A stretch of 64,000 bases of DNA from Halostella pelagica (GTDB lineage Archaea > Halobacteriota > Halobacteria > Halobacteriales > Natronoarchaeaceae). Below the pieces are notes generated by a model. It saw only the letters and a list, made by a program, of their open reading frames with translations. It ran no database searches and was not told the DNA's origin. Below, piece by piece: positions 44,222 to 55,020 of the stretch (position 1 is its first letter; every line of letters begins with the position of its first letter). Made by a program: the position numbers and the translations under genes. Location: NCBI GenBank assembly GCA_005954745.1, contig CP040678.1:3038001-3102000 (forward strand). The letters run 5' to 3'.

Positions 44222-47200
44222 CTACCGGAACCGCCGGCGGCCGAGAAGCGTAAGCGTCAGCGCGAGGACCGCACCGACCGGTCCGACGCCCGGTTGCCCG
44301 TCGCTTTCCGTCTCAGCGTCCCGGTCCTCTGCAGTGGTGGTCGACGGGTCACCGGTCGATTCGGTCTCCAACGGATCGCTCACCGTCACGGTCCCGACGT
44401 CCGTTTCGCCGATGTGCAGGTCGTGCGTGCCCGGTCCGAGCGTCGGAGCGAACGACACGGTCCGCGCCTCGCCGGGCGCGAGAGAGACAGTTCGCTCAGC
44501 GACGACCTCGCTGTCCCGTTCGAGCGCGACGGTGGCGTTACCTCCGGCGGTTCCGGTGTTCGTCACCGTCGCCTCGACGGGGACCGACTCGCCGTCCGCG
44601 ACTTCGGTCGCGCCGAGCGTCGCGTCGGTCACGGAGTACTCGGGGTGTTCGACGCCAACCGCGAACGCCGAGAACCCCGGAGTCGCCGCCTCGTACTCGT
44701 TCCCTGTGTAATTCGTCGGGAGGTCGCGCCACTCGCCGTCGTGATACCGGTAGAGCGTCACGTCGTCCGGGTCGGCACTGTCGGGGAGCGCCGACTGGGA
44801 CACGCTGAACCGGAGCGACGCCTCGGCGATCGCCTCCTCGGAAACGCCGTCGCGGCCGACGTCGAAGTAGCCAAGCGCCGTCGACCGGTTGTAAGCCGGG
44901 ACGTCCCCCGGCGGTTCCGCGGACGCCCCGACCGACAGGTCGAACTCGGGGGCGTTCTCGGCGAGAGTCACGTTGATACCGGTCGCACCGACGCCGTTCG
45001 CGGTCACTGACGCCGGGAGGTCGGCCGACGCGGTATCGCCTCGCAGGCCGCGGACGACGGTAACTGTCGCACCGTCCGCGGTGGCCGTCACGTCCGTTCC
45101 GACGCCGAGCGACGGTTCGAGCCCCGACGACGGCGCGCCGCCGCTTCCGCCCCCGCTACTGTCGTCGCCGTCGTTGTCGTCGCCGCCGTCGCTGCCATCG
45201 TTCCCTTCACCTCCGCCGCCGTCATTACCGTCTCCGTCGCCGCCATCATCTCCCCCACTACCATCGTCGTTACCGTCTCCGTCGCTACCGTTGCCGCTGC
45301 TGTTATCCGGTCTGGCTTCGACCGAAACGGTCACCGTATCGGTAGCCGAGACGCCGTACTCGTCGGTGAGCGTCAACGCGGCCTCGTACTCGCCGGGCGA
45401 CTCGTACGCGTGCGAGACGTGTTCTCCCTCGGCGGTCGCGCCGTCGCCGAAGGACCAGTCGTACGCGACGACTGTGCCCTGCGCCGCGCTGTCGGCGGCG
45501 TCGAACGTCACCGCGTCGCCGACGGTCGCCGTCGCGGGGTCGGCAGTAGCGTGCGCGACCAGCGACGGCTCTTCGAGCGTCACCGTGAGGTCCCGCGGGC
45601 CAGTGGCGACGACGGTCCGTTCGGTCGTCGTGGGGACGAACGACTCGTTCTCCGGCGGCGTGACCGCGACTGAGACGTTCCCGGAGAGTTCGAGTCCGTC
45701 TACGGGAAGTCGTCCGTCCGCCGTCGTCAGGAACTCGCCGACGCGGACCGACGCCCCGTTCGCGCTCACGTCGACCGCGACGGACGCGTTCGCCACCGGC
45801 GCTCCCGACTCGTCCGTGACCGTCATCGTCACCGGATGGCCGTCCGGTATGTCGTGCGTTCCGAGGTCAGCGTCCGTTTCGGTGACGGTGTTCGCCAGCG
45901 GGTAGACGTCCGCGACGCCGTCCTCGGGGAAGAACTCGTCTGCGGTCGTGTCGTACTGACGGTAGCCCACGTCGACGGTCGCGTTTCGGCGAACGCCGAC
46001 GGCGTACGACCCGTCCGCGTCGGTTCGCGAGACGTTCGTCCGCCTCGCCCCGTCGTGTGTCGTGACGACATCGTCGGCCGCGGCGGTACCGTCCGGGCCG
46101 CGGACCGTCCCTTCGAGCGTCACCGTCGGCGGCGCAGTCGACCGGTAGGCGTCGTACACCGTCGACTCCGCGAGGTTGCCCGACGCGTCGACGAGCGCGA
46201 CGTTCAGGTGGAGCGTCGACGCGGTGATCTGCGACCCGTCCAGTTCGACCGCGTACTCGCCGTTGCCCGTCCGCTCGACCGCCGCCTCGTGCCACGCCTC
46301 GCTCGTGTTCGTGACGTTCCCGTCGTGGGGGGCGGTCGTCACGGACCCGTCCGCGTAGCGCACGCGGACGCTGCCGTTGGCGAGGTCCATGTCGTCGCTC
46401 GCGGTGAGCGACAGCGTCACTGGAAGCCGGTACAGGGAGTTGCCTTCGCCACCGTCCGTCACCCGGATCCCCCGGAGTTCCGGCGGCGTGACGTCCTCGC
46501 CGGGACGGTACGTCGCGGCGTAGCGAGTGAGGGACCGCGTCGACAGGCCGTCGGAGCCGTTCGCCGTCAGCACCGCTTCGTACGTCGCGTTCTCGACGAG
46601 CGGGTCGTCGCCGGCGTACGCGAACTCGTCATCCGTTGTCGTCCGCGCGGCCACCGTCGTCCCGTTCCGGCGTATCTCGTAGTGGTTCGTCGCCGACGAC
46701 CGGTGGACGAACCGCGTGGGGGGTTGGTCAACCTGGAACCGCGCGCCGACGCTGACGTTGGCGGCGGCGGGCGTCGCCCCCAGATGCCAGTTCCGGCGGT
46801 CCGCCGTGAGCGGGTGGGCGCGGACGCTCACCGCTCTGTTCTCGCCGACCGCGAGCGACTGCATCGGCGAGACGAAACGCCAGTCGCCGCCGTTGTCGAC
46901 CGCTGTCAGCCCGTACGCCGTCCGGACGTCGCTCCCGGAGGGGGTGACGTACACCGTCTGCCGAGTTCTGTCGCGACGGTCCCAGCGGGCCGTCGTGAGG
47001 CCCCGTGTCGGGAACGCCGAGTGGGTGACAGTCCGCACGACATCGTAGTCGTCACCACTGCCGGTCCGGCCGTAGGTGACGGTCTGTGCGGCGAGGTCGG
47101 ACTCGTCGGGCGCGACGGTCCGCGGCCCGTCGACGCCGACGGTGGGATACACTAGATGATACGCCTCGGAAACGTCGAGGTGGTGCCCGCCGTCGTCGTA

Positions 47201-49600
47201 CGCGCTCGTAGGCGCGAGCAGGTACGAGACGCTAGCGTTTGCCGTACCCGTGCTGAATCGAACTGACGGTTCGTCGGGGAACGTCCGGAACGATTCGTAC
47301 GTCAGCGACCGACCGTCGGCGGTCGTCCGCTGCATTTCGCCCGCCGCGCGGAGCGTCTCCAGTTCGGTTCCGTCGCCGAGGCCGCTCGCGTTCAAGCCGT
47401 ACCGAACGGCGTCGTTCTCGTCGAACGAAACCGTCGCGTCGTCAGACACGGTCAGCGTCTCCTCCACGAGAACCGTCTCGCCGGTCGACTCGTCGACGCC
47501 GCCGCTGACGACCGTGTACGTGCCCTCGAAAACGAGCGTCTCCGCGTCGTCGCCGGAGAGAGACAGCACCTCAGTCGATCCGCCGTCACCGTGGCGGTAG
47601 AGGACCACTTCGTCGCCGGCGACGCTCGTTCCGTTCGCGCCGTGTTTCGAGACGGAGAGGCGGTGGCCGATCGTGTATCCGAAACTCCCGCGGTAGTCGC
47701 CGCCGTCGACTAGCAGTCGACCGGAGTAGACGCCCGCGTCGGTGGTCCCGTTGACTCGCACCGCGACGGCCTCGGTGTCTCCGGGCGCGACCGAGACGGC
47801 CGTCCGGTTCAGCGACACGTCGCCGGTCGTGCCGTCGTCGATATCGGTCGCGTGGGCGGAGACGTCAAGCGTTACCGTTTCGGTTCCGCGGTTAGCGAGT
47901 TCAACGATGCGCGTCTCGTTCGCAGACGGCCGGACGACGCCGAAGTCGACGGTCGACGGCGCGACGGTCACGTTTGCCGTCAGCGCGGCGGTCGCGTTGA
48001 CGCGGCCCGACCCCGCCTGGTAGATGTCGTAGTTGCCCTCGAGACGGTCCGTCCGCGTGACGAGCGCGCTCCGCACGTCGGTGGGGGTCCAGTCCGGATT
48101 CGCGTCGAGCAAGAGCGCGGCGATGCCGCTGACCGCGGGTGCCGACATACTCGTTCCGGAGTACTCGACGTACCTGTCGGTGCCCGCCCTCGCGCTGGCA
48201 ATGTCGACGCCGGGCGCGACGAGGTCGGGTTTCACGCGGTTCGTCGCCGTCGGGCCGCGGGAGGAAAACGGTGCGAGACGGTCGTCACCGTCGCTCGCGC
48301 CAACCGTGAGTGCCGACGGAACCACGCCGGGCGAGAGAACGGTACCGTAGCCGTCGTGGCCGGGGCGGCCGTCGTTACCCGCCGCGACGACGACGGTAAC
48401 GCCGTTGTCGACGGCGTACTGGACCGCGTCGAAGTAAGGGTCCTCGTCGTAAACGGGTCCGCCGAGGCTCACGCTGATCACGTCTGCGTCCGTCTCGTCG
48501 ACGGCGTACTCTATCGCGTCGATGACGTTGGAGCGACTGCCGTATCCGTCGCTCTCGATGACTCGGAGGTTCAGGACGCTCGCGTTCGGTGCGATGCCGG
48601 TGTAGGTTCCGTTGCTCGCGGAGCCGTCGCCCGCGACGATTCCGGCGGTGTGGGTCCCGTGCCCGTACGGGTCGTCAGTGGTCCCCTCGCCGGTGAAGTC
48701 GACCTGACGGGTCACGGCGTCCTGCAGGTCGGGATGAGAGTCGTCGACGCCCGAGTCGAGGACGGCGACGGTGACGTTCTCACCGTTGACGCCGTATCGA
48801 GAGCGCGCCGCGCCCGCACCGGTGAGTTCCGAAACGTCGTCGAGGGAGACGCTCACGCGTGCGTCGAGCGACACGTGTTCGATCTCGGCGCTCGTCCGGA
48901 GGGTCTCGTAGACGGCCGCAGACTGGTCTTTTGACACCGAGGCAGAAACCGCGTCGACGGAGTCGAGCGTGCGTTCGGCCGTCAGACCGCGCGTTCGGCC
49001 CATGTCGTCGCGCAGGGCCGCGGTCGGACTCCGCTCGGCATTGCCGTCCGTTCGACCGACTTCGTCCGGACTGCCTCGGCGCTCGACGATCACCGGGATC
49101 GAGTCGACGTTCGCGTCCGTCAGGTTCTGTTCCACCAGCAGGTCCACGTTGAACAGACGAGGATCGAACCGCTCCAGATCGGCGTTCTCGGGGAACACGT
49201 ACGTCCCGTCGGGTGTCGATATCCGCCGCATCGCCGTCTCCGCATCGGTCGTGTAGACGGTTTCACCGCGGCGCTTCTCGACGGTCACCGTCTGGCCGGT
49301 GATGAGCGTCAGCGTTACGGCGGACTCGTTCGCCGCTCCGGCGCGGTCAGCGCCCGGACCGGCAGTCGGGGAGCCGGTAGTTCTCCCGTCAGTCGAAGCG
49401 TTCGTGACCGAGAGGTTCGCATGGGTGTCCGATATCTGAACCTCTCGGTCGCCGGGCGGAGCCGCTTCTGCGTACGCGACAGCGGGTGCCGCTGTCGCCG
49501 AGACCAGCAGTAGAGCGACCAGAAACAGCGTCCGGAGAGACGCGTTGAGGCGAGACGATACGTCGTGGGACTCGCCTCCGCAGGGGCTGTCAGATTTCAT
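44222..49600 (-). CDS. Giant secreted subtilisin-like protease with PKD and PGF-type tail
   Basis: 1792 residues. A Sec-like signal (about 20-45) and propeptide (to about 260) precede an S8 subtilase domain. The triad is Asp282 (LDSGVDDSHPD), His314 (YGHGTHTAG) and Ser484 (SGTSMSAPAV), with oxyanion Asn409. Downstream are beta-rich domains, a carboxypeptidase-regulatory-like domain (about 1220-1300), a PKD domain (about 1395-1475, YDWSFGDGA), a Gly/Asp/Asn/Ser linker and a PGF-pre-PGF-like domain. A CARDB-like domain and a C-terminal QPGVG-hydrophobic-RRR signal follow. The last resembles PGF-CTERM, with Val for Phe. Probably anchored at the cell surface after archaeosortase processing. Confidence 0.92.
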   Translation of the reverse strand: MKSDSPCGGESHDVSSRLNASLRTLFLVALLLVSATAAPAVAYAEAAPPGDREVQISDTHANLSVTNASTDGRTTGSPTAGPGADRAGAANESAVTLTLITGQTVTVEKRRGETVYTTDAETAMRRISTPDGTYVFPENADLERFDPRLFNVDLLVEQNLTDANVDSIPVIVERRGSPDEVGRTDGNAERSPTAALRDDMGRTRGLTAERTLDSVDAVSASVSKDQSAAVYETLRTSAEIEHVSLDARVSVSLDDVSELTGAGAARSRYGVNGENVTVAVLDSGVDDSHPDLQDAVTRQVDFTGEGTTDDPYGHGTHTAGIVAGDGSASNGTYTGIAPNASVLNLRVIESDGYGSRSNVIDAIEYAVDETDADVISVSLGGPVYDEDPYFDAVQYAVDNGVTVVVAAGNDGRPGHDGYGTVLSPGVVPSALTVGASDGDDRLAPFSSRGPTATNRVKPDLVAPGVDIASARAGTDRYVEYSGTSMSAPAVSGIAALLLDANPDWTPTDVRSALVTRTDRLEGNYDIYQAGSGRVNATAALTANVTVAPSTVDFGVVRPSANETRIVELANRGTETVTLDVSAHATDIDDGTTGDVSLNRTAVSVAPGDTEAVAVRVNGTTDAGVYSGRLLVDGGDYRGSFGYTIGHRLSVSKHGANGTSVAGDEVVLYRHGDGGSTEVLSLSGDDAETLVFEGTYTVVSGGVDESTGETVLVEETLTVSDDATVSFDENDAVRYGLNASGLGDGTELETLRAAGEMQRTTADGRSLTYESFRTFPDEPSVRFSTGTANASVSYLLAPTSAYDDGGHHLDVSEAYHLVYPTVGVDGPRTVAPDESDLAAQTVTYGRTGSGDDYDVVRTVTHSAFPTRGLTTARWDRRDRTRQTVYVTPSGSDVRTAYGLTAVDNGGDWRFVSPMQSLAVGENRAVSVRAHPLTADRRNWHLGATPAAANVSVGARFQVDQPPTRFVHRSSATNHYEIRRNGTTVAARTTTDDEFAYAGDDPLVENATYEAVLTANGSDGLSTRSLTRYAATYRPGEDVTPPELRGIRVTDGGEGNSLYRLPVTLSLTASDDMDLANGSVRVRYADGSVTTAPHDGNVTNTSEAWHEAAVERTGNGEYAVELDGSQITASTLHLNVALVDASGNLAESTVYDAYRSTAPPTVTLEGTVRGPDGTAAADDVVTTHDGARRTNVSRTDADGSYAVGVRRNATVDVGYRQYDTTADEFFPEDGVADVYPLANTVTETDADLGTHDIPDGHPVTMTVTDESGAPVANASVAVDVSANGASVRVGEFLTTADGRLPVDGLELSGNVSVAVTPPENESFVPTTTERTVVATGPRDLTVTLEEPSLVAHATADPATATVGDAVTFDAADSAAQGTVVAYDWSFGDGATAEGEHVSHAYESPGEYEAALTLTDEYGVSATDTVTVSVEARPDNSSGNGSDGDGNDDGSGGDDGGDGDGNDGGGGEGNDGSDGGDDNDGDDSSGGGSGGAPSSGLEPSLGVGTDVTATADGATVTVVRGLRGDTASADLPASVTANGVGATGINVTLAENAPEFDLSVGASAEPPGDVPAYNRSTALGYFDVGRDGVSEEAIAEASLRFSVSQSALPDSADPDDVTLYRYHDGEWRDLPTNYTGNEYEAATPGFSAFAVGVEHPEYSVTDATLGATEVADGESVPVEATVTNTGTAGGNATVALERDSEVVAERTVSLAPGEARTVSFAPTLGPGTHDLHIGETDVGTVTVSDPLETESTGDPSTTTAEDRDAETESDGQPGVGPVGAVLALTLTLLGRRRFR

Positions 49601-49960: not shown

Positions 49961-49990
49961 GTAAGCCGGTGGGGGAATTTGGAACCCTCG
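49961..49990 (-). repeat. Partial tRNA-Thr 3' end (putative attL)
   Basis: GTAAGCCGGTGGGGG followed by ATTTG-GAACC resembles the 3' end of the tRNA-Thr gene and its flank at 54943-54970, with a few mismatches. It is the left boundary of the element whose recombinase starts at 50073. Confidence 0.7.
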
Positions 49991-50072
49991 GTGCTCCGTC
50001 GGGTGATTCTCGCCCTCTGGCGTCACCGCCGATCCTTACGCGGGGTAGTCTGTAGCCAGACAACAGACACCT

Positions 50073-51078
50073 ATGAACCTCAAGCAAACCCTGCCGGAAG
50101 ATGCCAAGAATCGGTATCTCAAAGACAAGAAGACCCACGTCAGCAAGAAGACCCTCTCCAACTATAGCACATCGTTGGGTATGTTCTGCAAGTGGTTGAA
50201 CTCGGAGAGAATCACTGATCTCCGTGACCTCGACAGTGACGAAATTCAGCGGTACAAAGAACACCGGCTGGACAACGTTAAGCCGATTACGGCACGGAAT
50301 GATATGTGGACCGTCAAGAACTTCGTTCAGTTCTGCGAGTCTATTCAGGCTGTTCCACAGGGTCTCTCAGAATTAGTTCGTATCCCAAAGGTATCTGAAG
50401 ACGATGAGATTTGCGACGATCTCCTGACCCGTGAAGAGGCTGTAGAACTGCTGGACTATCTTAAGAAGTACGAGTATGCGAGTATCCGTCACGTGACTCT
50501 GCTCATTCTCTGGAAAACTGGAATGCGAGTGGGTGGTCTTCGGTCCCTTGATCTCAAAGACTTCGATGAAGTACGGCCTGCTCTACAACTCAGACATAGG
50601 CCCGACATGGCCACCCCCCTCAAACGTAAGGAAAAGAGCCAACGAGACGTTCTCATTTCCACCGAGACGGCCGATGTGATAGTTGATTATATCGAGAATA
50701 CCCGCCCGGACGTTACTGACGAACACGACCGGGAACCGCTAATTGCGACCGATCACGGACGTATTGCGGAAACAAGCCTACAAAGATACGTCTACACCGC
50801 AACTCGGCCCTGTCACTACACAGGGGCCTGCGCCCTCGACCGTGACCCCAGAGGAGTGCGAGGATAACAGTTGGAATGGGTCGTCTGCCTGCCCCGACTC
50901 AGTAAGCCCTCACGCGCTTCGTAGAGGATATGTGACTGCTGCCCGGAATGCAGGGCAGGCCAAGGATGTGACCGGTGAGCGTGTGAATATGAGCGGGAAG
51001 GTCCTTGACAAACACTACGATAAGGGTTCATTCGGCGAGAAGGCAGAGAGACGGCGTAACCATCTGAAGGACATTTAG
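50073..51078 (+). pseudogene. Tyrosine recombinase/integrase, frameshifted
   Basis: The first frame (50073-50867) has the SAM-like N-terminal domain (KKTLSNYSTSLGMFCKWLNS) and the first catalytic Arg (TGMRVGGLRSL). It then passes into CALDRDPRGVRG and stops. The second frame, ending at 51078, supplies the rest: EECEDNSWNGSS, SPHALRRGYVT (H-x-x-R) and VLDKHYDKGS (Tyr nucleophile). One extra base in the C-run 50846-50850 (CCCCA) would explain the break. Restored, it has all catalytic residues except the usual Glu after Arg-I. It was probably the element's integrase. The 51079-51363 gap holds no gene. Confidence 0.85.
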
Positions 51079-51363
51079 ACTCTCACAACAGGTCTTTCTC
51101 CAATCCAATATCATCTGAACTTACCATTTATAGATCAGAAGCAAGCCCAGATATTCAAGTTTCCGGCAGAATGATGGTGAGATATGCTATCGGTTCTGGC
51201 GCCCAATTCAAGTAGTTGGCAGTAAACTCCCAACGAACCGGTTGAGACAGGCGAACGAAGTAGCGCGGTGGGTCACAACTCATCTGTATCCTATCAAGAA
51301 TAGCGTACTGGATAGAGAAGATGCCGGTAGTGGATAACCTATTTTGGTCTTGGGTATAATGTT

Positions 51364-52416
51364 ATGTCCATGTCAAAAGCAGAAGAATTGCACGCGTTTC
51401 TGACGGATCTCCCGAGCCGCGAATTTGAGACGGTACGTGACTACGAACGGGAATCAATCTCAGAATTCCTCAACATTCTTGGATATTCTTCTGAAAATAT
51501 CTTCTACGAGGTAACTCGGAACCTTCCGCAGCAACAGGAAACAACATTTTTTGATGCTTTCGTAGCGACCTCTCCTGATGCCATACCCTGGATCTGTCTT
51601 GAGGTCCGAAAATATACAGAAACCTCATATCCTGAGACCGGTGGTCAAATTGATCCGCATATATTCCGCGATCTCGAATGTTACCAATCGATCACAAACG
51701 CCCAGTATAGTGTTGTCTTGACTAATCGGGCGTTAGGTGTTCAAACAAATGATAACCAACATGGGTTCAACCATGAAACAATCGGTATAGATGACTGCGA
51801 ATGGATCGTTGAAACTCTTTCTTCCCCAGGCTATATACCGGAAGTAGAAGAACTCTCAGAAAAAGAAGCCAAGGATAAGCCTGATGAAATCACTACCGAT
51901 AAATTTAGTATAGACTTAGAAACGTATCGTACCCGACTCAAAGCGGTTACAGAGGCAAAGACAAATCAAGAAAAAAAGGAGACATTGGAAGACTTAGCGG
52001 CCTTATTGATCCAGGGCGTTCCACAATTTTCCGTGCATCGCCGAAATCTCAATACACTGAGCGGGGAGATAGACTTAGTTGTGGAAAACTCTGACGCGCA
52101 ATCTGCAATCAACTGCCATAGTCGATATTTTCTCATAGAGTGCAAGAACTGGGCTGACAGTGTTGGTGCAGATCGAGTTCGAGACTTTACTGGAAAATTA
52201 CAATCCGCAAAGTCCAGCCTCGGAATCCTGTTTGCGAAGAACGGAATTTCCGGACCTGATAGCGAAAATGCAAAGAAAGTTATTAATGATACATTCCAAC
52301 AAGATGGGATCGCAGTAATAGTGTTTGACTTAAACGACTTAGAGCAGATCGCTGAAGGGAAAAGTTTTCACGAATTCCTCGAAGAGAAGATCTTCAATCG
52401 ACGCTTCCCGACTTAG
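51364..52416 (+). CDS. Putative nuclease with two PD-(D/E)XK-like modules (Mrr-like)
   Basis: 350 residues from ATG 51364. The N-terminal half has TTFFDAFVATSPDAIPWICLEVRK, a D...E-x-K pattern like restriction-type N-domains. The C-terminal half has LSGEIDLVVEN...RYFLIECKNWADSVG, the standard PD-(D/E)XK signature of Mrr-like endonucleases (Asp, then E-C-K). A charged helical linker (KAVTEAKTNQEKKETLEDL) joins them. The Lys/Asn-richer composition and AT-rich codons differ from core genes. Located in an integrated element, it could be a restriction or anti-phage nuclease; no methylase is nearby, so classical restriction-modification is not supported. Confidence 0.65.
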   Translation: MSMSKAEELHAFLTDLPSREFETVRDYERESISEFLNILGYSSENIFYEVTRNLPQQQETTFFDAFVATSPDAIPWICLEVRKYTETSYPETGGQIDPHIFRDLECYQSITNAQYSVVLTNRALGVQTNDNQHGFNHETIGIDDCEWIVETLSSPGYIPEVEELSEKEAKDKPDEITTDKFSIDLETYRTRLKAVTEAKTNQEKKETLEDLAALLIQGVPQFSVHRRNLNTLSGEIDLVVENSDAQSAINCHSRYFLIECKNWADSVGADRVRDFTGKLQSAKSSLGILFAKNGISGPDSENAKKVINDTFQQDGIAVIVFDLNDLEQIAEGKSFHEFLEEKIFNRRFPT

Positions 52417-53052
52417 ATACTGAAGAATCTCAAATTCTATCCTATGAACACCTCTCTTAACTATGCACCTATATTCAGCAAGACCATCAGAATATCTATA
52501 CGAATTGGCAGAATGCCATCGGGCGATGCAGTAATACTGCACAGGCGTTTCTACGAAGCAGAATGAAATGGGCTGGACAGACGATCTTACCGCAGTCCTT
52601 CGTATGAATTTGGTGCAGTCTGGCGGGTTGAACACAGCAAAAGGGGCCAGAGTGTAACCCTGCCTCTATAATTGATCCCCGCTCCGCATTGTATGATGCT
52701 TACAGGTAATAATCGGTCCGGTTGTTACACCGTTCATTCTGCAAGCTCAAGATATGGATGTAGCCCTCCCAGAAAATCATGCAATTTGCCAGACTAAGAG
52801 CGTTCTCTTCTCGCTGCCTCTCCGATCTGTAAATAACACTTCCTTAGCCTACTGTGTCACGCTACAAGATCGGTAATCTGGCTGAATCGAATTAGTCGCC
52901 TTGTCTTCTGAAGTCACGAAAGCCACCAAGAGGCCAAAATTAACCCTGATCAGAAGGTCCCTTCGCAGCGAGAAGCGCCCGGAAGCGACGGACTGAGAGA
53001 AACGTTTAAGATACTCAACTTACCTTGTAATAGAGGAGACACAAACCTCTGA
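52417..53052. other. Gene-free AT-rich stretch of the element
   Basis: 636 bases without a convincing frame on either strand; the one possible minus-strand frame overlaps the nuclease gene and has non-haloarchaeal composition. It contains CAGCGAGAAGCG (52966-52977), a motif repeated at 53749-53763 and inverted at 53945-53959. Confidence 0.45.
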
Positions 53053-53700
53053 GCGGCGCAACTCTTCCAGTGTCCTGTCAGCAGTGATCCGCATACTGAG
53101 CTGCACGGTTTCTCTCCCCTATCTGCAATAAGTTCCGAAACAGCAACCCAGACCAGCACCAGCCTTGCACAGCCAGATACCACACGTGAAACCACCATTG
53201 GTCCATCCACTTACAATACGCCATATTGGACTCCCCAACACGCAGGCCAGTTCTGGCCCGCCGACTACCTCTATCGACGGAAGGGAAAGTTCTTCCAGCA
53301 CTTAGAAGAGATCGACAAAGGGCTTAAGAGCGGCTATACGTGGTGGAATCAACCGTACTTCACGCGCTTAGCCAATCGGGACCTGATAATCATCTTCGCG
53401 GATAATCTTGAACTGACGCCCGCACAGAAGCGGCTCGCGGTAGCATTCTTCCTTGAGCAGGATCTCGGAAAGTGGGGTATCCGGAAGGAACTCGTTCTGT
53501 GGGCTACCTGTGCTTACGTTGTCCATGAAGATGAGGCAGACAGCAGACGGTGCCACCCTCGAACTAAAGAAGAGGCCACAGACAAACAGTTCCTTGAGGC
53601 AGCATACAGTCTGGACCTTAGGTTCAAATACCGAGAGAAGACTTACGGGAAAGTCCAGCATCTCTTTCGGCGGGAATGGAGCCAAGGGGGTGGTATATAA
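53053..53700 (+). CDS. Coding frame without canonical start, element-type hypothetical protein
   Basis: Frame open from the TGA at 53050-53052 to TAA 53698-53700 (215 codons) with no ATG, GTG or TTG. From about 53230 it reads as a genuine protein: FWPADYLYRRKGKFFQHLEEI, then RDLIIIFADNLELTPAQKRLAVAFFLEQ, DLGKWGIRKELVLWATCAYVVHED and CHPRT. The region up to 53229 is Ser/Thr-rich. The gene may have lost its 5' end by mutation, or use a rare start. The sequence resembles proteins I associate with haloarchaeal integrated plasmids and proviruses, but the match is from memory. Function unknown. Confidence 0.5.
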   Translation, partial: AAQLFQCPVSSDPHTELHGFSPLSAISSETATQTSTSLAQPDTTRETTIGPSTYNTPYWTPQHAGQFWPADYLYRRKGKFFQHLEEIDKGLKSGYTWWNQPYFTRLANRDLIIIFADNLELTPAQKRLAVAFFLEQDLGKWGIRKELVLWATCAYVVHEDEADSRRCHPRTKEEATDKQFLEAAYSLDLRFKYREKTYGKVQHLFRREWSQGGGI

Positions 53701-54132
53701 ACCCTCGAATATTCTATTAAGTGAAACCGGACACCAGTGAGAACCTCATAACAGCGAGAAGCGTAGTCTTAGAATGAAACTACAGAATCCTTGAGACCAT
53801 ATTGCTCTTCGCCCCCTTCACGCTGAGAATGGTCCCCCGAGAAGTAGTATTAGGCAGAGAATGCGCACCAACTCTCAAAGACCCTTGCCGTTTTCGCCCG
53901 CTATCGAGGTAACCTTACGAAGTAGGTGGCTGTAACTCGACGCCCGCTTCTCGCTGTTAATGGCGCTTACAAGATTACTTAGACAGGTATGAAATTCTCG
54001 CCCATAGCCACAGTCAAGACAGTTTCGCAAGCCGATCTTGAGGGAGGAATAGAACTCTGGTCAGTACGCTCAGATGAACCCACTCCCAAGGAGAACCGAA
54101 CTGGAGAGGCAATGATTGATTGTTGTCATCTC
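53701..54132. other. Gene-free stretch with a 15-base inverted repeat
   Basis: TAACAGCGAGAAGCG (53749-53763) and its exact complement (53945-53959) face each other across about 180 bases. A plus-strand frame from 53989 exists, but it runs into and overlaps the membrane gene and has no protein-like features. The repeats might mark an element end or a control region. Confidence 0.4.
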
Positions 54133-54729
54133 CTACTTAGCGCCGATACCATATGCCTCACGTACCTCAGATGCCAACTTTTCGCTGAAGTACAATTGAG
54201 TAACTGCGTACGGGAGTGTTACTATTATGGCAAGCGTCGCAATAAGAGGAACATTCGGTTCAATTCGGGCAAAGCGGCCGATCTGATTGACTAAGACTCC
54301 AAAAAAGAACGATGGGACCGCGTGGTATATATTTGACCGTATCGCTGTCCCATTCCGACGCATCTCTTCGTATTCGGTGACTTCCAGGTAGGGGAGAATA
54401 CAGAACAAGACGAGAACCGCGAAAGTAAGAAACAAACGAGCGGGCGGCGTGACTGCGTAACTCACCATGAAAATCCCCGAGAATAGTATCACACAGTTTA
54501 TTGCGTGGAGTGACTGAAAATGCCCCAATTCATTTACATGGTCCACTTCGAACATTGATTCAAGAATAGAGTTAAATCGGCTCTCTACCGCGTGCGGAGT
54601 CGGTTCAATTCTCTCTCCCACTGCGCCAGACAGGGAGAGCTGTCGCACGATCCCTGTGATTTCCATTACTACCAAGAGCATTACCGGTACCAAGATTGAG
54701 GTGGTGAATGCTAAATCACCATTTGCCAT
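54133..54729 (-). CDS. Multi-pass membrane protein of the tRNA-Thr element
   Basis: 198 residues with five or so hydrophobic segments (about 8-25, 78-95, 98-115, 140-155 and 160-185). A soluble loop (QLSLSGAVGERIEPTPHAVESRFNSILESMFEVDHVNEL) sits between the first two. It is transcribed opposite to the integrase and nuclease, and is the last gene before the tRNA. No family recognised. Composition is AT-rich like the rest of the element. It could be an immunity or effector membrane protein, but this is only context. Confidence 0.65.
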   Translation of the reverse strand: MANGDLAFTTSILVPVMLLVVMEITGIVRQLSLSGAVGERIEPTPHAVESRFNSILESMFEVDHVNELGHFQSLHAINCVILFSGIFMVSYAVTPPARLFLTFAVLVLFCILPYLEVTEYEEMRRNGTAIRSNIYHAVPSFFFGVLVNQIGRFARIEPNVPLIATLAIIVTLPYAVTQLYFSEKLASEVREAYGIGAK

Positions 54730-54946
54730 ATCGCTGGATACAACCCCACCTTCTTAGATTTTTACTAATATATGTCCTGCTTCGTTTTCAAAAATCACGT
54801 GACTGCTACTCTGGAGTGCGGTCACGGGTGTCATTTCCACCGGCAATGCTATTGCAAAAACGGGTGGAAATATCATATCAAATACGGCGGGAAAGTTAAG
54901 ATACAGTGGAGCAGTCTCTGAATTACGGATTACCCCGCAGGGGTAA

Positions 54947-55020
54947 GCCGGTGGGGGGATTTGAACCCCCGGCCTAATCCTTACGAAGGATTCGCTCTAG
55001 CCAGTCTGAGCTACACCGGC
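54947..55020 (-). tRNA. tRNA-Thr (anticodon CGT)
   Basis: 74 bases on the minus strand, GCCGGTG...CACCGGC acceptor pairing. D-arm GCTC/GAGC, anticodon stem AATCC/GGATT with loop TTCGTAA (anticodon CGT, reading ACG), and T-arm GGGGG-TTCAAAT-CCCCC follow. No CCA is encoded. The 3' half is the integration target of the element on its left. The 55021-55125 stretch is its 5' flank. Confidence 0.95.

What the first reader, a model, noticed from the sequence alone, without database searches (positions are those of the whole stretch)
51364..52416. One protein with two nuclease-like motifs, no methylase partner
Both halves carry D...E-x-K patterns (FFDAF...LEVRK and GEIDLV...LIECKNW). Alone in an integrated element, it could be a self-contained defence or inter-element competition nuclease.
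Basis: partly seen in the sequence, partly recalled or inferred. Interest (0 to 1): 0.55.

Follow-up and report, generated by a model that had tools for sequence, protein, structure and literature searches.

The report
Provirus-borne double-nuclease-fold restriction protein
A salt-loving archaeon carries, inside what looks like the decayed remains of an integrated virus, a protein made of two DNA-cutting-enzyme folds, of which one still has its full active site and the other has probably lost it, and relatives suggest such proteins are cargo that integrated archaeal viruses use against rival DNA.

Summary
The ORF is real (350 aa, 51364-52416+). Its C-half is a Mrr-type nuclease domain (Pfam Mrr_cat above cut-off) with a complete active site (E209, E235xD237, E259xK261). 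In 14 aligned family members the C-site lysine is kept in 13, while the N-site is intact in 4 of 5 bacterial but only 1 of 9 haloarchaeal proteins. The host element is a 5-kb insertion at tRNA-Thr with a frameshifted integrase closest to betapleolipoviruses (HRPV-9, SNJ2); four congeners lack it there. Five of 10 haloarchaeal members lie near betapleolipovirus integrase/NTPase genes, against 0 of 20 control regions; one sits between the virion genes and Rep gene of a provirus. Best reading: methylase-free restriction cargo of pleolipovirus-type proviruses, probably for excluding competitors. Activity, target and modification dependence are untested.

The parts
51364..52416 (+). Two-domain nuclease-fold protein, 350 aa, intact frame, GC 43.6%
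51364..51852 (+). N-half (residues 1-163): predicted restriction-endonuclease (HSDR_N/DrdV-like) fold with decayed site D64 (51553-51555), E80 (51601-51603), R82 (51607-51609)
   Evidence: AlphaFold2 pLDDT 88.7, pTM 0.85; VIA Z 9.6 to DrdV residues 2-147, 8.0 to TT1808, 7.7 to HsdR 3h1t; relative L082 passes Pfam HSDR_N_2; columns
51853..52413 (+). C-half: Mrr-type catalytic domain; E209 (51988-51990), E235 (52066-52068), D237 (52072-52074), E259 (52138-52140), K261 (52144-52146)
   Evidence: Pfam Mrr_cat 26.9 bits, cut-off 21; VIA Z 10.7-11.1 to BspD6I subunits and AF1548; conserved columns
50073..50867 (+). Tyrosine integrase, first part; nearest viral relatives are betapleolipovirus integrases (HRPV-9 39.6%, SNJ2 38.6%, HHPV4 36.7%)
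50743..51078 (+). Rest of the integrase in another frame: the gene is frameshifted
49961..49987 (+). Left att-like repeat (copy of the tRNA-Thr 3' end, 89% over 27 nt)
54943..54969 (+). Right att-like repeat, in the tRNA-Thr 3' end; spacing 4982
54946..55020 (-). tRNA-Thr(CGT), presumed integration target; present without the element in 4 of 4 congeners
53206..53697 (+). Orphan open frame of 164 codons without an evident start, in the element; no Pfam or phage-collection match
54133..54729 (-). 198-aa ORF in the element, by eye a membrane protein (Acyl_transf_3 below cut-off)

Best explanation
A stand-alone restriction-type nuclease carried as cargo by a now decayed betapleolipovirus-type provirus. 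Shown by computation: the protein joins an N-terminal HSDR_N-like PD-(D/E)XK fold (predicted) to a C-terminal Mrr-type PD-(D/E)XK domain; the C-site is complete, the N-site has lost its lysine; the gene lies in a tRNA-Thr-integrated element with a betapleolipovirus-type integrase. Inferred: the C-domain cuts DNA; the N-domain now serves to bind or recognise the target, or as a dimer or control surface; and, since no methylase travels with it, it spares self DNA either by needing a modified or otherwise foreign feature (Type IV-like) or by controlled activation. Its benefit to the element would be exclusion of competing viruses and plasmids, which also protects the host. The ancestral two-site form kept in bacteria could have cut both strands as one polypeptide; the window copy would then nick, or cut as a dimer. 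My estimates per step: active DNA nuclease 0.8; N-site inactive 0.75; pleolipovirus-type element 0.8; exclusion/defence role 0.6; modification-dependent 0.4.
For: Mrr_cat above the Pfam cut-off in the window protein; Mrr_cat is listed for 7 of 7 members of A1 at E<=1 and for L081 and L082 (38.9 bits each). C-site columns kept. N-domain fold and HSDR_N_2 in L082 at 25.1 bits, cut-off 25. Intact N-site in 4 of 5 bacterial relatives and in haloarchaeal L081, with the haloarchaeal rows on one side of a 100/100 branch. Integrase kinship. Site without the element in 4 of 4 congeners. Betapleolipovirus integrase or NTPase near 5 of 10 haloarchaeal members against 0 of 20 controls (whose models included three of the target loci's own proteins; repeated with viral queries only, same five; p = 0.0018). 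L016 keeps the SNJ2 order spike-NTPase-gp18-[nuclease]-Rep-integrase. Defence-type neighbours: L017 Eco57I methylase, HNH, GHKL ATPase; L080 D12 methylase and SIR2_2; L020 PbeA; L081 T1RH-like_C; L018 DpdA/DpdC-like protein. Precedent: HHPV4I, a modification-dependent restriction enzyme of a betapleolipovirus, proposed to exclude other viruses (PMC10101028; abstract, discussion and passages read).
Against: No match in the phage/virus collection (for the window protein, for a bacterial member), nor in IMG/VR by pattern scans that reach close relatives, so cargo status rests on proviruses. PADLOC does not know the protein. Member L080 has no Pfam match at all at E<=0.5, although its C-site columns are kept. 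The looser test, any of 25 SNJ2/HRPV-9 proteins, gives 6 of 10 against 4 of 20 (p = 0.045); the stricter split was chosen after seeing the results. The five bacterial loci show none of these 25 proteins, so the virus link is haloarchaeal only. L082 lies among high-GC3 genes that look chromosomal. L015 has lost K261 and L018 is frameshifted, so the gene decays. The host has a D12 methylase, which argues against recognition of that enzyme's site (unknown). No defence experiment exists to my knowledge.
Confidence: 0.5

Rival explanations
1. Both sites are active: D64/E80 with R82 or K83 in place of the usual lysine, so one polypeptide makes a double-strand cut.
For: D64 and E80 are kept in the window protein and a basic residue is at 82; four bacterial relatives have two complete sites; PD-(D/E)XK sites can tolerate changes at the lysine (recalled, from no call).
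Against: K82 is absent in 9 of 10 haloarchaeal members and position 80 is neither E nor D in 4 of 10, so the N-site is not under strong constraint in this clade.
Confidence: 0.15
2. An activated effector (abortive infection): the N-domain or a partner senses infection and unleashes the C-domain on host DNA.
For: The C-domain aligns to Can2/Card1/Cdn1 nuclease domains (Z 6.9-8.8) and relatives of it are joined to or lie beside other proteins (Halorussus plasmid and L084, about 700 aa; Kozakia beside SIR2 and ATPase; Agrobacterium beside a TIR/deoxyribosyltransferase-like protein, below Pfam cut-offs).
Against: No CARF or other ligand-binding domain was found by Pfam; the N-half is a restriction fold; the same structures list also holds plain restriction enzymes at higher Z.
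Confidence: 0.2
3. A viral replication or recombination nuclease of the provirus, not a defence protein.
For: In L016, L018 and L080 it lies next to the Rep-Arvir (DUF7845) gene, and in the window and L019 next to the integrase.
Against: No member in SNJ2, HRPV-9 or HHPV4, which have the same replication genes; other ORFs (HHPV4 ORF17, HRPV-9 ORF22) fill that slot; five bacterial loci have no homologue of 25 SNJ2/HRPV-9 proteins.
Confidence: 0.12
4. A decaying passenger without present function.
For: Integrase frameshifted; most of a provirus is missing; L018 and L015 members are damaged.
Against: The 350-codon frame and the whole C-site are intact while the neighbouring integrase is broken.
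Confidence: 0.15

Closest known systems
Mrr_cat (PF04471) Type IV restriction enzymes, e.g. Haloferax volcanii Mrr
   Same: Catalytic domain family, PD-(D/E)XK site, no methylase partner
   Different: The N-terminal part is an HSDR_N-like restriction fold; modification dependence not shown
HSDR_N / HSDR_N_2 (PF13588) and the N-terminal region of DrdV
   Same: Predicted fold of the N-half; one relative passes the Pfam cut-off; four bacterial relatives keep D..ExK
   Different: No helicase, methylase or specificity part; lysine lost in the window protein; no profile match for the window protein itself
HHPV4I of betapleolipovirus HHPV4 (PMC10101028)
   Same: Restriction enzyme of a virus of the same genus as the element's nearest relatives
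   Different: HHPV4I is SRA-wH-HNH, with a different catalytic fold; no match to this family's profiles
BspD6I / FokI cleavage domains, AF1548
   Same: Best structural matches of the C-half
   Different: Sequence identity 9-20%; no FokI-type recognition part
CRISPR ancillary nucleases Can2/Card1 and Cdn1
   Same: Nuclease domain aligns to the C-half (Z 6.9-8.8)
   Different: No CARF domain found here
Betapleolipoviruses SNJ2, HRPV-9
   Same: Integrase family; some relatives' loci carry the virion, NTPase and Rep genes
   Different: The window element keeps only the broken integrase; these isolated viruses lack the nuclease

Membership tests
Mrr_cat restriction endonuclease domain | Profile match above the curated cut-off | tested here: met
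   26.9 bits against 21
Mrr_cat restriction endonuclease domain | Complete catalytic residues | tested here: met
   E209, E235, D237, E259, K261
HSDR_N (type I R-subunit N-terminal nuclease) | Profile match for the window N-half | tested here: not met
   No HSDR_N match to the window protein; of 14 N-domains one, L082, matches HSDR_N_2 (whole protein 25.1 bits, cut-off 25)
HSDR_N (type I R-subunit N-terminal nuclease) | Restriction-endonuclease-like fold | tested here: met
   Predicted model only: DrdV Z 9.6 (139-141 aligned, rmsd 4.1), HsdR 3h1t Z 7.7 (115 aligned, rmsd 4.1); Z of 7-8 can be chance
HSDR_N (type I R-subunit N-terminal nuclease) | D..ExK active site | tested here: not met
   R82 instead of K
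Type I R-M system | Helicase motor plus HsdM and HsdS | tested here: not met
   350 aa with no further Pfam domain above cut-off; none among the 6 element ORFs scanned
Type IV modification-dependent restriction enzyme | No cognate methylase beside it | tested here: met
   6 element ORFs scanned
Type IV modification-dependent restriction enzyme | Cuts only modified DNA | not testable with these tools
   Needs biochemistry
Betapleolipovirus-type provirus (window element) | SNJ2-type tyrosine integrase | tested here: met
   39.6% to HRPV-9, 38.6% to SNJ2, 98% coverage
Betapleolipovirus-type provirus (window element) | Spike, NTPase and Rep genes | tested here: not met
   None found within 7 kb of the nuclease in the window; present in L016, partly in L017, L019, L080
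Known PADLOC defence systems | Model match | tested here: not met
   0 families at E<=1

The most novel reading that the evidence does not exclude
A family for which I found no name, spread over Halobacteria, Pseudomonadota, Myxococcota and Chloroflexota, of methylase-free restriction proteins made of two different PD-(D/E)XK nucleases in one chain (HSDR_N-like plus Mrr-like): originally self-sufficient double-strand cutters with two unlike active sites, in which pleolipovirus-borne copies in haloarchaea turned the first nuclease into a recognition or control module. In other haloarchaea the same N-domain stands alone inside a DrmMI/DrmMII/BrxHII-like defence cluster.
Probability: 0.35. Interest if true: 0.65.

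Novelty: new variant of a known kind. Interest (0 to 1): 0.45.

Why it matters
If true, betapleolipoviruses repeatedly carry restriction nucleases as cargo (HHPV4I being one unrelated case), so the variable slot between their virion genes and Rep gene would be a place to look for archaeal antiviral systems. The family also offers a natural series, from two intact sites to one, for testing how a catalytic domain becomes a recognition module, and a small one-gene restriction barrier to test in genetically tractable haloarchaea.

Tried and rejected
Rejected: (a) that the N-half is no nuclease fold. (b) That the two halves are recent duplicates: hhalign probability 0.2%. (c) That the two-domain design is confined to haloarchaea: this was my working view after the class and phylum samples, and overturned it. 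(d) Type I R-M remnant: no helicase, M or S found. (e) GATC-m6A specificity by analogy with HHPV4I and H. volcanii Mrr: not supported, since the host has a D12 methylase, though its site is unknown.

Led nowhere: sequence searches of the PDB (none; best E 0.2 and 0.48); NCBIfam (nothing near its cut-offs for this protein); PHROGs (two families of unknown function, weak, C-half); phage and IMG/VR searches; GATC/CTAG counts, which say nothing specific about the nuclease. Foldseek E-values are modest (best 3.6e-4 for the whole model, and 2.4e-4 for the N-domain, both DrdV); RNA-polymerase subunit E (RPB5) chains follow at ranks 2-6 for the whole model and align to the C-half at Z 7.1-8.4; human and mouse mitoribosomal chains score Z 7.2-8.0 on the N-domain, so only the DrdV match stands out there. 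Paper passages on Hachiman and on pleolipovirus taxonomy added nothing decisive.

Full report
What is there. The window is haloarchaeal chromosome (in a 3.94-Mb genome of 4 contigs). At 51364-52416 (+) an intact 350-codon gene lies in a low-GC stretch (44-53% per kb against roughly 60-70% around it). The stretch is bounded by a 27-nt direct repeat, 89% identical, at 49961 and 54943; the right copy is the 3' end of tRNA-Thr(CGT) at 54946-55020. In 4 of 4 congeners the tRNA-Thr is present and no DNA of 49961-54935 is found beside it. In two of these (L099, L100) the homologue of window 44.1 kb lies only about 300 and 140 bp from the tRNA, so the protease-like gene of 44222-49600 is missing there too and the region has gained or lost more than this element.

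The element. Besides the nuclease it has a tyrosine integrase (50073-50867, continued in another frame to 51078, hence frameshifted), a 198-aa ORF (54133-54729) and an orphan frame (53206-53697). The integrase's nearest viral relatives are betapleolipovirus integrases: Halorubrum pleomorphic virus 9, 39.6%; SNJ2, 38.6%; HHPV4, 36.7%, each over 98% of the query. It is therefore best described as a decayed betapleolipovirus-type integrative element; no virion or Rep gene was recognised in it.

The protein. The C-half matches Pfam Mrr_cat above its cut-off. The N-half of the window protein matches no nuclease family in Pfam. AlphaFold2 on the alignment gives pLDDT 81.9, pTM 0.52 for the whole and 88.7 and 0.85 for the N-domain alone. 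In VIA-align the C-half aligns to the BspD6I subunits (Z 10.7-11.1), AF1548 (10.7), FokI (9.5), AspBHI and Can2 (8.8), Cdn1 (7.8) and Card1 (7.2), with RNA-polymerase subunit E chains at 7.1-8.4. The N-half aligns to residues 2-147 of DrdV (Z 9.6), then TT1808 (8.0), HsdR 3h1t (7.7) and 3ijm (7.3), with mitoribosomal chains also at 7.2-8.0. The sequence bridge is relative L082, whose N-half passes HSDR_N_2 (25.1 bits, cut-off 25) and whose C-half is Mrr_cat. Both halves are thus restriction-endonuclease folds by prediction, but not recent copies of one another.

Relatives and active sites. In 391 genomes of the class, 9 had a match to the protein, of which 7 (own included) cover most of it and 2 only the C-half. 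Family-wide searches with the alignment gave three more full-length members: G703 and G715 among 125 genomes, G789 among 26; none new among 146 and 170, nor among the 9 of the own family (one C-half match). The phylum sample gave 21 of 392, outside the order C-half matches only. That makes ten haloarchaeal members, window included; the first six others show 29-34% identity to it; one (L018) is frameshifted. Nine of the ten have a Mrr_cat match at the limits used; L080 has none at E<=0.5. A scan of GTDB contigs with the C-domain alignment gave 13 loci. Of these, 7 of 13 also carry the N-domain at E < 1e-5: two are haloarchaeal members already known (L124 = L081, Natronococcus pandeyae; L132 = L019, Natrinema hispanicum), and five are bacterial (Azohydromonas australica, Luteimonas gilva, Agrobacterium cavarae, a Polyangiaceae and a Caldilineaceae MAG). 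In the 14-row alignment (the ten haloarchaeal members less the broken L018, plus the five) E209, E235, D237 and E259 are invariant and K261 is kept in 13 of 14 (L015 has E); L018, dropped there, keeps all five. The N-site D64/E80/K82 is complete in 4 of 5 bacterial and 1 of 9 haloarchaeal rows; the window has D, E, R. In the tree the haloarchaeal rows fall on one side of a 100/100 branch and intact N-sites occur on both sides; three changes suffice, and 84 of 500 label shuffles do as well, so the clustering itself is not significant, and most of the order within the haloarchaea is unresolved. I infer an ancestor with two active sites and repeated loss of the first among haloarchaea.

Genomic setting of relatives. 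L016 carries, in SNJ2 order, spike, NTPase, gp18-like, the nuclease, Rep, and integrase genes; L017 has spike, NTPase and gp18; L019 a partial NTPase, gp18 and integrase, then the nuclease; L080 has Rep, the nuclease and integrase; L018 has Rep beside the nuclease. The Rep gene is DUF7845, shown in SNJ2 to be the replication initiator Rep-Arvir (PMC13107129, passages read); that paper reports DUF7845 also in other viruses and plasmids, so L018 alone is weak evidence. The L017 NTPase is 61% identical to that of HRPV-3. Integrase or NTPase of this type occurs near 5 of 10 members (window, L016, L017, L019, L080) and in 0 of 20 control regions, taken at even steps from large contigs of five of the genomes (Fisher p = 0.0018; split chosen afterwards). 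The models included proteins from L017, L019 and L080, with viral queries only, finds the same five. With any of 25 SNJ2/HRPV-9 proteins it is 6 of 10 against 4 of 20 (p = 0.045). The five bacterial loci have none of the 25. HHPV4 and HRPV-9 hold other ORFs, with no match to this family, between the NTPase block and Rep, so I read this as a cargo slot. Defence-type neighbours: L017 (Eco57I-type methylase, GHKL ATPase, HNH), L020 (PbeA helicase), L018 (DpdA/DpdC-like), L080 (D12 methylase, SIR2_2), L081 (T1RH-like_C); no background was measured for these. L082 lies among high-GC3 genes that look chromosomal.

The N-domain alone. Four haloarchaeal genomes encode it as a separate protein of 133-205 aa as my ORF caller drew it (G034, G091, G212, G753), in a cluster that looks the same in all four by ORF order (homology of L033 and L083). 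The PADLOC scan, done for the L033 copy only, shows a DrmMI/type IIG-like methylase, a DrmMII-like cytosine methylase, a BrxHII/DrmD-like helicase, a DrmC-like protein and, by Pfam, an AspBHI_N-HNH enzyme. This links the domain to defence independently of the Mrr part. These four lack the N-site lysine too.

How it probably works. A Mrr-type C-domain cutting DNA, guided or restrained by a former nuclease domain, without a methylase. Precedent in the same virus genus: HHPV4I, a modification-dependent SRA-wH-HNH enzyme, which its authors propose excludes other viruses (PMC10101028: abstract, discussion and passages read). In haloarchaea, Mrr of H. volcanii is reported to lower transformation by GATC-methylated plasmids (PMC6471742, passages read). 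Prophage-borne antiviral genes in fixed slots are known in bacteria (PMC9122126, passages read). I put 0.5 on the whole chain.

Novelty. I found no paper naming this combination: searches 'pleolipovirus'+'Mrr' (4 papers listed; passages of two of them read), 'betapleolipovirus'+'restriction endonuclease' (5 papers listed), Mrr_cat+HSDR_N (none), 'two nuclease domains'+'Mrr' (5 papers listed, none opened). This covers only the open library. The parts are known kinds; the pairing and the provirus setting make it a new variant.

Noticed in passing
L033:2559-13930; likewise L034, L035, L083: Haloarchaeal cluster: DrmC-like protein, 1381-1387-aa DrmMI/type IIG-like methylase, AspBHI_N-HNH enzyme on the other strand (in pieces in L034), stand-alone N-domain protein, 980-aa BrxHII/DrmD-like helicase (split in L034), DrmMII-like methylase. 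It looks like a DISARM/BREX-like variant with a small extra protein.
   Followed up: partly
L011:6378-8480 and L084:6944-8986: A Mrr-type C-domain related to the one studied here, after a different N-terminal region of about 530 residues, in two haloarchaeal replicons (87% identical proteins).
   Followed up: no
L012:5133-6456; L013:5057-6465: Overlapping gene pairs on Agrobacterium and Sphingomonas plasmids: a deoxyribosyltransferase-like protein (in L012 also a TIR-type CAP12 match, both below Pfam cut-offs) followed by a Mrr-like nuclease; possibly a two-gene effector system.
   Followed up: no
L014:2331-6413: Kozakia baliensis plasmid: Mrr-like nuclease, then a SIR2-family protein and an ATP-binding protein in a row.
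   Followed up: no
window 44222-49600: Very long protease-like gene (S8/PKD by eye, not scanned); in two congeners the tRNA-Thr lies about 300 and 140 bp from the homologue of window 44.1 kb, so this gene is missing there too.
   Followed up: partly
window 49961-50061: The left repeat continues, after a gap, into a second stretch resembling the tRNA-Thr (50032-50059, 75%), as if a whole decayed tRNA copy were present.
   Followed up: no
window 49961-54968: CTAG occurs 0 times where base composition predicts 19; GATC is not depleted (28 against 19).
   Followed up: no
window 53206-53697: 164-codon open frame without an evident start codon in the element, no match found; maybe an N-terminally truncated gene.
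   Followed up: partly
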